DNA of 64,000 nucleotides from Hymenobacter busanensis. Lineage in GTDB: Bacteria; Bacteroidota; Bacteroidia; Cytophagales; Hymenobacteraceae. The notes under the pieces were generated by a model. The model did not search any database. It was given only the letters and a program-made list of their open reading frames with translations, and was not told the origin of the DNA. The stretch spans positions 124,001 to 188,000 of the forward strand of contig NZ_VTWU01000003.1 in the NCBI RefSeq assembly GCF_008727865.1, read 5' to 3'. The number at the start of each line of letters is the position of its first letter. Within the stretch, counting starts at the first letter, position 1. The position numbers and the translations under genes were made by a program. This document shows positions 7,829-9,845 of the stretch, piece after piece.

Positions 7829-7948
7829 TATGCTTAAAGCAATGCAATTCAGCCGCTTTTTTCGAATGGCGGGGTAGCTATATAGCCCCGTAGGAGCCGC
7901 GCATTTTGGGTTGGCCGTTTCGGCCGGATTTGGTAAGCTGGAACGACC

Positions 7949-8020
7949 AAGCTCCCCTCCTTTTTGAAGGAGGGGACGCCACCGCTTTAGCGGGGGCTGG
8001 GGTGGTTGCGTCGTTGCTGA
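7949..8020 (+). repeat. Left structured repeat of the DUF559 cassette
   Basis: The outer 30 nt (7949-7978) are an exact inverted copy of 8513-8542 and themselves fold into a 10-bp stem, TCCCCTCCTT with AAGGAGGGGA, around a TTTG loop. A second small hairpin CCGC-TTTA-GCGG follows, then GCTGGGGTGGTT and CGTTGCTGA, both shared with the right repeat. Confidence 0.85.
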
Positions 8021-8046
8021 CGTTGTTCACACCGGGGTCAGGTTAT

Positions 8047-8424
8047 TCAGGATGCCTCGTTCCCGCGAAACGCCGCTGTGATGGCTGCTAATACCCAGTC
8101 CATCTGCTCAAACACAAGCTTGTTCTCAAACCGAATAACCCGAATACCAACACTGTCCAAGTAGGCCGTGCGCGCCGTATCATGCGCGGCTCCCACTACA
8201 TCAAAATGCCCCTGCCCATCCAATTCCACGGCCAGCCGTTCGCTCGGGCAGTAGAAATCAAGAATGTACGGTCCCACACTGTGCTGCCGCCGGAACTTTC
8301 GGCCGTCTAGCTGTCCGCCTTGTAGAGCTTTCCAAAGAGTAGCTTCGGCAGGCGTAAGGTTCTCCCGCAGTTCGCGGCGCTTGGGCTTGACTTCTTGGCG
8401 GTTGTGGCGGAAGGTATTGGGCAT
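8047..8424 (-). CDS. DUF559 endonuclease-like protein
   Basis: This 125-aa protein fits the DUF559 family, which has the Vsr/very-short-patch-repair-like PD-(D/E)XK fold. The N-terminal helix carries RELRENLTPAEATLWKAL. The core shows GRKFRRQHSVGPYILDFYCP followed by LAVELDGQGHF, giving the conserved Asp of the DFYC strand and the Glu of VELDG. The end has VIRFENKLVF. Such proteins are common as single genes in Bacteroidota and their biological role is unsettled. Here the gene sits between two structured inverted repeats, with 26 and 46 nt separating it from them. DNA cleavage or nicking of the repeats is a hypothesis only. Confidence 0.9.
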   Translation of the reverse strand: MPNTFRHNRQEVKPKRRELRENLTPAEATLWKALQGGQLDGRKFRRQHSVGPYILDFYCPSERLAVELDGQGHFDVVGAAHDTARTAYLDSVGIRVIRFENKLVFEQMDWVLAAITAAFRGNEAS

Positions 8425-8470
8425 GAGGCCAAGCTACTGAATCGTGCTGGTGCGCCAAGCGGCGCGGAAG

Positions 8471-8542
8471 TCAGCAACGGCGGAACCACCCCAGCGGCAA
8501 GTAAACTTGCCGCGTCCCCTCCTTCAAAAAGGAGGGGAGCTT
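8471..8542 (-). repeat. Right structured repeat of the DUF559 cassette
   Basis: Read on the minus strand it matches the left repeat at both ends and in GCTGGGGTGGTT. The central hairpin is a different sequence: 8494-8513 forms an 8-bp stem GCGGCAAG with CTTGCCGC around TAAA. So the structure is kept while the sequence changes. The outer 30 nt are identical to the left copy. Confidence 0.85.
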
Positions 8543-8556
8543 ACCGCTCAGGCACA

Positions 8557-8588
8557 AAAAAGCCCGCAGCCGGAGCCGCGGGCTTTTT
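8557..8588 (-). terminator. Rho-independent terminator of nrdB
   Basis: An 11-bp stem pairs AAAAAGCCCGC with GCGGGCTTTTT. On the minus strand it ends in a run of T, 21 nt past the nrdB stop codon. On the plus strand it also ends in five T, so it may work both ways. Confidence 0.85.
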
Positions 8589-8609: not shown

Positions 8610-9569
8610 TTAAAAATCCTCGTCGAGCGAGAAGGCGTTTTCGGTCCGCTCGCTCATCACGCCGGCTTTCTGGTACTCGGCCACGCGCTTCTCGAAGAAG
8701 TTGGTCTTGCCCTGCAGCGAAATCATTTCCATGAAGTCGAAGGGGTTCGAGGCGTTGTAGATCTTGCGGTAGCCGAGCGACACCAGCAGGCGGTCGGCTA
8801 CAAACTCGATGTACTGCGACATGGCCTTGGCGTTCATCCCAATCAGGTTCACCGGCAGCGCGTCGGTCACAAACTCCTGCTCGATCTGTACCGCGTCGCG
8901 GATGATTTCGTGCACGCGCTCCTCCGAGAGCTTGTTTTGCAGGTAGCTGTAGAGCAGGCAGGCGAAGTCGCAGTGCAGGCCCTCGTCGCGCGAAATCAGC
9001 TCGTTGGAGAAAGTCAGGCCCGGCATCAGGCCGCGCTTCTTCAGCCAGAAGATGGAGCAGAACGAGCCCGAGAAGAAAATGCCCTCCACGGCTGCGAAGG
9101 CAATGATGCGCTCGGCGAAGTTTTCGGAGTTGATCCACTTCAGGGCCCACTCGCCTTTCTTCTTCACGCAGGGCACGGTTTCCAGCGCGTTGAACAGACG
9201 GTCTTTCTCCTGCGGGTTCTTGATGTAGGTGTCGATCAGCAGCGAGTAGGTTTCCGAATGGATATTTTCCATCATGATCTGGAAACCGTAGAAGCAGCGT
9301 GCCTCGGGCATCTGCACTTCCTGCATGAAGTTCACCGCCAGGTTCTCGTTCACGATGCCGTCGGAGGCGGCGAAGAAAGCCAGCACGTGCGAGATGAAGT
9401 GCCGCTCGTTGTCGTTGAGCGAGTCCCAGTCTTTCTGGTCCTGCGAGAGGTCAATTTCCTCGGCCGTCCAGAACGAGGCTTCGGCCTTTTTGTACATCTG
9501 CCACACGTCGTTGTTCTGGATGGGGAACAGCACGAAGCGGTTGGGATTCTCTACAAGAAGCGGTTCCAT
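8610..9569 (-). CDS. nrdB: Ribonucleoside-diphosphate reductase, beta subunit (class Ia)
   Basis: This 319-aa R2 subunit holds the di-iron/tyrosyl-radical cofactor that starts catalysis in NrdA. The ferritin-like fold shows [11 protein letters not shown] with the first Glu ligand, then [19 protein letters not shown]. The motif [20 protein letters not shown] holds the radical Tyr (residue 94) and further iron ligands; this form resembles eukaryotic R2 more than the Escherichia coli one. The start at 9569 ([12 protein letters not shown]) is preferred over an ATG at 9716 because it matches the usual R2 N-terminus. It precedes nrdA but is separated from it by a terminator and the DUF559 cassette. 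Confidence 0.97.
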
Positions 9570-9699
9570 AGGCGGGCAACGGAAAGAAAGAAACGAGAGG
9601 AAAATCCGGTACGGGGCCGGGCAACGGTTGGGCTGCCAACCCCGGTTCAGCAGCAATTGTTTGGGCCGGCCAACACCACAAAAGCGCCCGGCCGAAGAC

Positions 9700-9707
9700 C
9701 AAAGATA
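9700..9707 (-). promoter_or_regulatory. Bacteroidota -7 element for nrdB
   Basis: On the minus strand it reads TATCTTTG, an exact TAnnTTTG match, about 130 nt upstream of the nrdB ATG. The -33 region is weak. Confidence 0.55.
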
Positions 9708-9845
9708 GTCCGGCACACCGAACGAAACCCGCCCTTCGGGGCTTTTTTATGCGTTATGTTTTTGCTATGCCACTGGGCAGCACAGGCGGGCCTTTTTCCC
9801 ATTAAAAGCCAATACATCGGCTAAAAAGCCCATTTTGGGACAAAG

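What the first reader, a model, noticed from the sequence alone, without database searches (positions are those of the whole stretch)
7932..8546. DUF559 nuclease cassette between structured inverted repeats
A lone Vsr/PD-(D/E)XK-like DUF559 gene lies exactly between two 72-nt repeats in inverted order. The outer 30 nt are identical; both copies hold a 10-bp stem-loop at the end and a second hairpin in the middle. That middle hairpin differs in sequence and length between copies (CCGC/GCGG against GCGGCAAG/CTTGCCGC) yet stays self-complementary, so structure and not sequence appears selected. This resembles RAYT-REP units, with a DUF559 protein where the transposase would be. I know of no described mobility function for DUF559. 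Inference: the nuclease nicks or moves its own hairpins, or disperses repeat-only copies through the genome.
Basis: partly seen in the sequence, partly recalled or inferred. Interest (0 to 1): 0.78.

Follow-up and report, generated by a model that had tools for sequence, protein, structure and literature searches.

The report
DUF559 nuclease with hairpin repeat units
A tiny nuclease gene of unknown function sits between two folded DNA repeats, and the same pairing recurs in many bacterial phyla with many gene-less repeat copies per genome, suggesting an undescribed repeat-spreading system driven by a homing-endonuclease-like enzyme instead of a transposase.

Summary
A 125-aa DUF559 gene (8047-8424, minus) lies between inverted 73-nt units (84% complementary). 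Each unit is an invariant hairpin (CCCCTCC/GGAGGGG), a variable second hairpin and GGGGTGGTT. The second stem covaries at 8 of 8 pairs.

The unit is a genome-wide repeat, usually in gene-less inverted pairs 150-300 nt long (26 hits here, 7-91 per congener). All 18 solo DUF559 genes in eight congeners are framed by such units. Among 74 relatives across phyla, 39 share one hairpin arm on both sides, against 1 of 278 controls. Hairpin class follows the protein tree (8 changes, 25 when shuffled). Unit number follows the gene: family genomes without DUF559 have 0-3 units, those with it a median of 8. E. coli shows the same for ycjD (DUF559) and a BoxC-like repeat. Cassettes also sit in frame in MetH, in PurL C-termini and in AddA-like helicases. 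The model resembles homing endonuclease I-Bth0305I and Vsr.

Best reading: a REPtron-like pair with an unrelated nuclease, which is not RAYT, a TIR transposon or an intron. Not shown: cleavage, movement, a precise empty site or a target duplication. No held paper describes it.

The parts
8047..8424 (-). DUF559 (PF04480) gene, 125 aa, Vsr/EDxHD-type PD-(D/E)XK fold; conserved acidic/His residues E27, D56, E67, D69, H73 intact
7949..8021 (+). left structured repeat unit (type C), tail pointing at the gene
7953..7976 (+). hairpin 1 of the left unit, TCCCCTCCTT-TTTG-AAGGAGGGGA, near invariant
7978..7997 (+). hairpin 2 of the left unit, GCCACCGC-TTTA-GCGGGGGC, variable but self-complementary across copies
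7998..8007 (+). conserved tail TGGGGTGGTT of the left unit
8470..8542 (-). right structured repeat unit, inverted
8515..8538 (-). hairpin 1 of the right unit
8494..8513 (-). hairpin 2 of the right unit, GCGGCAAG-TTTA-CTTGCCGC on the minus strand
8484..8493 (-). conserved tail TGGGGTGGTT of the right unit (minus strand)
8557..8588 (.). nrdB terminator-like hairpin next to the insertion; not part of the element

Best explanation
A two-part mobile-repeat system. A DUF559 nuclease gene is held between two structured units. The same units, mostly as gene-less inverted pairs, are spread over the genome, each type with its own single-copy cognate DUF559 gene. It works like a RAYT-REPIN ('REPtron') pair, but with a Vsr/EDxHD-type nuclease related in fold to homing endonucleases. 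Shown by sequence: the cassette, its recurrence across phyla, compensatory stem changes, co-inheritance of hairpin class and protein, dosage of units with the gene, and occupied versus unoccupied sites including in-frame insertions. Inferred: the nuclease recognises the unit (invariant hairpin 1 plus the GGGGTGG tail) and cuts at or beside it or at terminator-like hairpins; repair from another copy then adds a unit or pair at a new site, or converts the middle stem between copies. The cleavage chemistry, the strand cut and the intermediate are unknown.
For: All 18 solo DUF559 genes in eight congeneric genomes have inverted units (IR >=30 bits); 0 of 3 non-solo DUF559 ORFs and 0 of 30 NrdB control loci do. 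Of 74 relatives in GTDB genomes, 39 carry the same hairpin-arm 7-mer on both sides within 300 nt, against 1/278 shifted controls; IR >=30 bits in 39/74 against 6/281. Framed members come from Bacteroidota, Acidobacteriota, Nitrospirota, Cyanobacteriota, Pseudomonadota, Planctomycetota and Kiritimatiellota. Hairpin class needs 8 changes on the protein tree against a shuffled mean of 25.3, minimum 20 of 1000. Covariation at 8/8 pairs of stem 2. Units in congeners: 26, 68, 80, 57, 67, 91 where a type B/C DUF559 is present (one of G003's two is a pseudogene), 9 and 7 where it is absent. In the family, 13 genomes with no DUF559 have 0-3 units and 107 with it a median of 8, p 2e-5. In E. coli, repeat places number 8-21 (median 15) in sampled genomes with ycjD and 2-12 (median 3.5) without, p 6e-10. 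DUF559 cassettes in frame in MetH of three genomes, where 115 of 119 genomes have the plain linker. Predicted fold matches 3hrl (DUF559), I-Bth0305I 3r3p and Vsr 1vsr.
Against: No biochemical evidence. No base-precise empty site or target-site duplication: alleles without the element differ by 24-74 nt and often hold another hairpin. Units occur both tail-in and tail-out around the gene, so element ends are not fixed. 26 of 74 relatives failed both framing tests. E. coli ycjD has units only on its downstream side. E. coli O157-type genomes lack ycjD but hold up to 12 units, so the dosage link is partly phylogenetic. Some family genomes with DUF559 have no type-C-like units, presumably because their DUF559 is another type. 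Most gene-less pairs are shared by G003 and G007, so spread is slow.
Confidence: 0.66

Rival explanations
1. Passenger: the units are dispersed by another enzyme (RAYT, an IS transposase, or plain replication and recombination slippage), and DUF559 genes were captured between units.
For: Most copies lack the gene. The genome encodes two RAYT-like Y1 genes.
Against: The two RAYT genes have their own, different inverted repeats. The NrdB controls show no framing, and the four-helix-bundle genes tested are framed only by a different kind of repeat. Hairpin class follows the DUF559 tree. Genomes without DUF559 have almost no units.
Confidence: 0.17
2. Homing element: DUF559 cuts specific unoccupied alleles and the cassette is copied in by homologous repair, as with free-standing homing endonuclease genes; gene-less pairs are deletion relics.
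For: Fold nearest to I-Bth0305I. Same-site insertions in MetH in two genera and in PurL of many genomes. The nrdB-nrdA gap is occupied by different DUF559 types in G000 and G028.
Against: Gene-less pairs are far more numerous than genes, at unrelated sites, and their interiors are not DUF559 remnants. No intron or intein is present.
Confidence: 0.12
3. Host function: DUF559 is a Vsr-like repair or processing nuclease that keeps hairpin-forming repeats in check, and the repeats mainly act as transcription terminators or mRNA ends.
For: Many units lie just after stop codons where relatives have other terminator hairpins. Caulobacter VsrA carries a DUF559 domain and can cause DNA damage (PMC12907096).
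Against: The symmetric framing of the gene itself, in-frame MetH and AddA insertions and cross-phylum recurrence are not explained.
Confidence: 0.05

Closest known systems
RAYT (TnpA-REP) / REP / REPIN systems ('REPtrons'; PMC3116915, PMC8266576)
   Same: Single-copy gene next to structured palindromic units; many gene-less inverted pairs; unit abundance tracks gene presence; each gene type has its own unit type.
   Different: The enzyme is a Vsr/EDxHD PD-(D/E)XK fold, not a HuH Y1 transposase; units show CCCCTCC and GGGGTGG motifs, not a GTAG or CGTC tag; a second, covarying stem of changing sequence.
EDxHD/Vsr homing endonucleases (I-Bth0305I, PDB 3r3p)
   Same: Catalytic fold; repeated occupation of the same site within conserved genes.
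   Different: No intron or intein host; far more gene-less copies; structured inverted units frame the gene.
Vsr mismatch endonuclease; Caulobacter VsrA (PMC12907096)
   Same: Fold and active-site residues; VsrA contains DUF559.
   Different: Here the gene is a repeat-bounded cassette; no methyltransferase lies between the units.
E. coli BoxC repeat (56 bp, 22-32 copies; PMC2267715)
   Same: The ycjD-adjacent repeat has about 18 places per genome and the same plan, hairpin CCCTCT/AGAGGG plus GGGTGAGGGG.
   Different: Identity with BoxC rests on size, copy number and my recollection of its sequence; no source sequence was checked.
Rickettsia palindromic elements (my own knowledge)
   Same: Palindromic DNA inserted in frame in protein genes.
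   Different: Those carry no nuclease gene; here a DUF559 ORF lies inside.

Membership tests
RAYT-REP (REPtron) | HuH Y1 transposase (PF01797) as the associated gene | tested here: not met
   Gene is PF04480 with a Vsr-like fold; the genome's two Y1 genes have other repeats
RAYT-REP (REPtron) | Palindromic unit with GTAG or CGTC tag | tested here: not met
   Consensus CTCCCCTCCTT..AAGGAGGGGA-stem2-TGGGGTGGTT has no conserved GTAG or CGTC tag at the hairpin base
RAYT-REP (REPtron) | Many dispersed gene-less units, often as inverted pairs, with a single-copy gene | tested here: met
   7-91 units per genome; each close DUF559 type about one copy per genome
RAYT-REP (REPtron) | Unit abundance correlates with gene presence | tested here: met
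RAYT-REP (REPtron) | Enzyme cleaves single-stranded unit DNA | not testable with these tools
   needs biochemistry
Homing endonuclease element | Nuclease fold of a known homing family | tested here: met
   3r3p second-best PDB entry, TMt 0.74, E 3e-4
Homing endonuclease element | Cassette within a specific site of a conserved gene, with unoccupied alleles | tested here: inconclusive
   True for MetH (4 occupied, 115 unoccupied); not for the dispersed gene-less units
TIR transposon / MITE | Fixed terminal inverted repeats | tested here: not met
   Units face inwards in some cassettes and outwards in others
TIR transposon / MITE | Target-site duplication | tested here: inconclusive
   None seen, but no base-precise empty site was found
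DUF559 (PF04480) | Score above the family cut-off | tested here: met
   105 bits against cut-off 20.6
Known RNA family | Rfam gathering score | tested here: not met
   No match above gathering threshold

The most novel reading that the evidence does not exclude
DUF559 proteins are, as a family, dedicated mobility nucleases of a cross-phylum class of mobile DNA made of hairpin units with or without the gene, moving by a mechanism unlike any transposase; this class includes ycjD and a BoxC-like repeat of E. coli and tolerates in-frame insertion in housekeeping genes.
Probability: 0.38. Interest if true: 0.92.

Novelty: new variant of a known kind. Interest (0 to 1): 0.8.

Why it matters
CCCCTCC/GGGGTGG-type hairpin repeats occur in many bacterial genomes with no known means of dispersal, and DUF559 is a widespread nuclease family with little known function. 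The two are linked here by framing, co-inheritance and dosage, and a homing-endonuclease fold gives a plausible engine. The idea can be tested in a laboratory organism: E. coli K-12 carries ycjD and its repeats.

Tried and rejected
(1) A third stem pairing the outer flank with the sequence inside the unit (a target guide), suggested by AACGAC...GTCGTT: copy-specific pairing does not exceed shuffled partners (28 of 200 shuffles as high). (2) RAYT as the mover: the genome's two Y1 genes have unrelated repeats. (3) Other cargo: four-helix-bundle (PF05635) genes are framed by a different kind of inverted tandem repeat, not by these hairpins. (4) Gene-less pairs as DUF559 relics: no residual DUF559 in their interiors. 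(5) Known RNA family: none. (6) Base-precise empty sites from 23 joined-flank queries: junction-spanning matches were found, but the intergenic sequence differs or holds another terminator or repeat, so ends and target duplications stay unresolved. (7) E. coli genomes without ycjD as clean empty sites: one checked has other genes after sapF. (8) Prior description: no held paper combines DUF559 with repeats or palindromes, and the 14 papers naming DUF559 were listed but only two were read; preprints are not held.

Full report
CHECK OF THE OBSERVATION. The inverted arms are at 7949-8021 and 8470-8542 (73 nt, 84% complementary). Each has a terminal 10-bp hairpin, a second hairpin and a GGGGTGGTT tail, and folds far better than shuffles (z -4.6 and -4.8). 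The only gene between them is a 125-aa DUF559 ORF at 8047-8424 on the minus strand (PF04480 E 2e-30). It lies between nrdB and nrdA. The residues conserved in 59 relatives (E27, D56, E67, D69, H73) are intact.

THE UNIT IS A DISPERSED REPEAT. In the window's own genome the unit has 16 BLAST hits at E<=1e-3, mostly inverted pairs 150-300 nt long with no gene. A covariance model from 23 copies finds 26 hits here and 9, 68, 80, 57, 67, 7 and 91 in the seven other genomes of the genus. Hairpin 1 is almost invariant. All eight pairs of hairpin 2 change on both sides across copies: 97.6% of cells paired overall, covariation 0.419 against 0.124 when shuffled and at most 0.11 when slid. So structure is kept while sequence changes.

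HAIRPIN 2 IS SWAPPED BETWEEN COPIES. G003 and G007 share most elements at orthologous sites. In 9 of 19 matched arms the middle stem is a different, still self-complementary sequence (identity 0.71 or less) while hairpin 1 stays 81-100% identical. The same stem sequences recur at other loci. I read this as conversion between dispersed copies, which would fit breaks made inside units. That is inference.

LINK TO DUF559. In the genus, 18 of 18 solo DUF559 genes are framed by inverted units of three related types; three non-solo DUF559 ORFs are not, nor are 30 NrdB control loci. In a sample of 80 relatives from GTDB genomes, 74 could be tested. 39 have the same hairpin-arm 7-mer on both sides within 300 nt, against 1 of 278 shifted controls. 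An inverted repeat of 30 bits or more is present in 39 of 74 against 6 of 281. Framed members come from Bacteroidota, Acidobacteriota, Nitrospirota, Cyanobacteriota, Pseudomonadota, Planctomycetota and Kiritimatiellota. A plasmid copy in Pseudanabaena has 91-nt arms at 89%. The hairpin class follows the protein tree: 8 changes against a shuffled mean of 25.3.

DOSAGE. The two congeners without a DUF559 of the window's clade (types B and C) have 7 and 9 units; the six with one have 26-91. One of G003's two such genes is a pseudogene with an in-frame stop. Over 120 genomes of the family, the 13 without any DUF559 have 0-3 units, and the 107 with it have a median of 8 (Mann-Whitney p 2e-5).

E. 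COLI. E. coli carries a DUF559 gene, ycjD, between sapF and fabI; a place covering at least 80% of this region occurs in 3,360 of 5,426 complete genomes. Downstream of it lies a repeat with the same plan, CCCCTCTGGGGAGAGGGTTAGGGTGAGGGG, with about 18 places per genome. In a ranked sample, genomes with ycjD had 8-21 places (median 15) and genomes without had 2-12 (median 3.5), p 6e-10; lineages are not independent, and O157-type genomes lack ycjD yet keep up to 12. Size and copy number match BoxC as listed in PMC2267715. That it is BoxC is my recollection, not tested. ycjD has no unit on its upstream side.

SITES WITH AND WITHOUT THE ELEMENT. At nrdB-nrdA the element is absent from many relatives (for example G020, whose NrdB is 97% identical), and G028 has a type B DUF559 cassette in the same gap. 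Joined-flank queries found six elements whose site is unoccupied in a relative; the gap there is a short terminator-like hairpin or other sequence of 24-74 nt. G003 has a lone hairpin at a site that is full in G007 (L255/L240). DUF559 cassettes also sit in frame in MetH between the cap and B12 domains in three genomes and split MetH in a fourth, while 115 of 119 family genomes have the plain linker. Others form C-terminal extensions of PurL or lie in frame in an AddA-like helicase. No target duplication or base-precise junction could be fixed.

FOLD. The AlphaFold2 model (pLDDT 84) matches 3hrl (a solved DUF559 protein), then the catalytic domain of homing endonuclease I-Bth0305I (3r3p) and Vsr (1vsr). 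A nuclease specialised in mobility is therefore plausible.

MECHANISM. Most likely the DUF559 nuclease recognises the unit and cuts at it or at terminator-like hairpins, and repair from another copy spreads units, pairs and occasionally the gene. The recognition, cut and repair steps are inferred; the association, dosage and stem swapping are shown by sequence. Units face inwards in some cassettes and outwards in others, which argues against a conventional transposon with fixed ends and for the unit as the element.

COMPARISON. It works like a RAYT-REP system (PMC3116915, PMC8266576) but fails both defining tests, the HuH transposase and the GTAG/CGTC tag. The genome's two RAYT-like genes have their own repeats. 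It shares a fold with homing endonucleases but lacks an intron or intein and has too many gene-less copies. No paper in the held library combines DUF559 with repeats or palindromes; Caulobacter VsrA is the one functionally studied DUF559 protein I found (PMC12907096). Preprints and most subscription papers were not searchable, so novelty is provisional.

Noticed in passing
L270-L289 (PF05635 loci in the same eight genomes): Four-helix-bundle (23S rRNA IVP family) genes are often framed by inverted arrays of short tandem units (about two thirds of 20 loci at >=30 bits), unlike the DUF559 hairpins: possibly a second kind of single-gene, repeat-framed element.
   Followed up: partly
L129, L130, L135 (MetH in frame); L131 (MetH split): A DUF559 cassette is inserted in frame between two MetH domains in three genomes; in G010 the reading frame is broken after it, giving two ORFs.
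   Followed up: partly
L132, L134, L136, L137, L139, L141, L143, L148, L153: DUF559 fused in frame to the C-terminus of PurL (phosphoribosylformylglycinamidine synthase) through a translated repeat (PHPPAPSP.G.G).
   Followed up: no
L327 1205-1430 (E. coli K-12, ycjD-fabI): E. coli ycjD is DUF559 and has a BoxC-like unit downstream; about 18 copies per genome.
   Followed up: partly
L007, L260, L262-L265, L269: A separate repeat family (CGTCATGCTGAGC..TCGAAGCATCTC, inverted) lies inside many gene-less pairs and at orthologous sites in other species.
   Followed up: no
L025 (G000:C6:559694) and L026 (G000:C6:59302): Two RAYT-like Y1 genes, each framed by its own palindromic inverted repeats.
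   Followed up: partly
L326 831-3309 (Synechocystis sp. B12 plasmid): A DUF559 gene lies between a short DUF1156 ORF and a following ORF and may interrupt a DUF1156 gene.
   Followed up: no
window 8610-9716 (nrdB): NrdB is 96-97% identical to three genomes of another genus code (g5) but about 88-91% to its own genus code: transfer or a classification quirk.
   Followed up: no
L045 (G007:C1:1092476): A 236-aa DUF559 protein with a basic C-terminal extension and no framing repeats.
   Followed up: no
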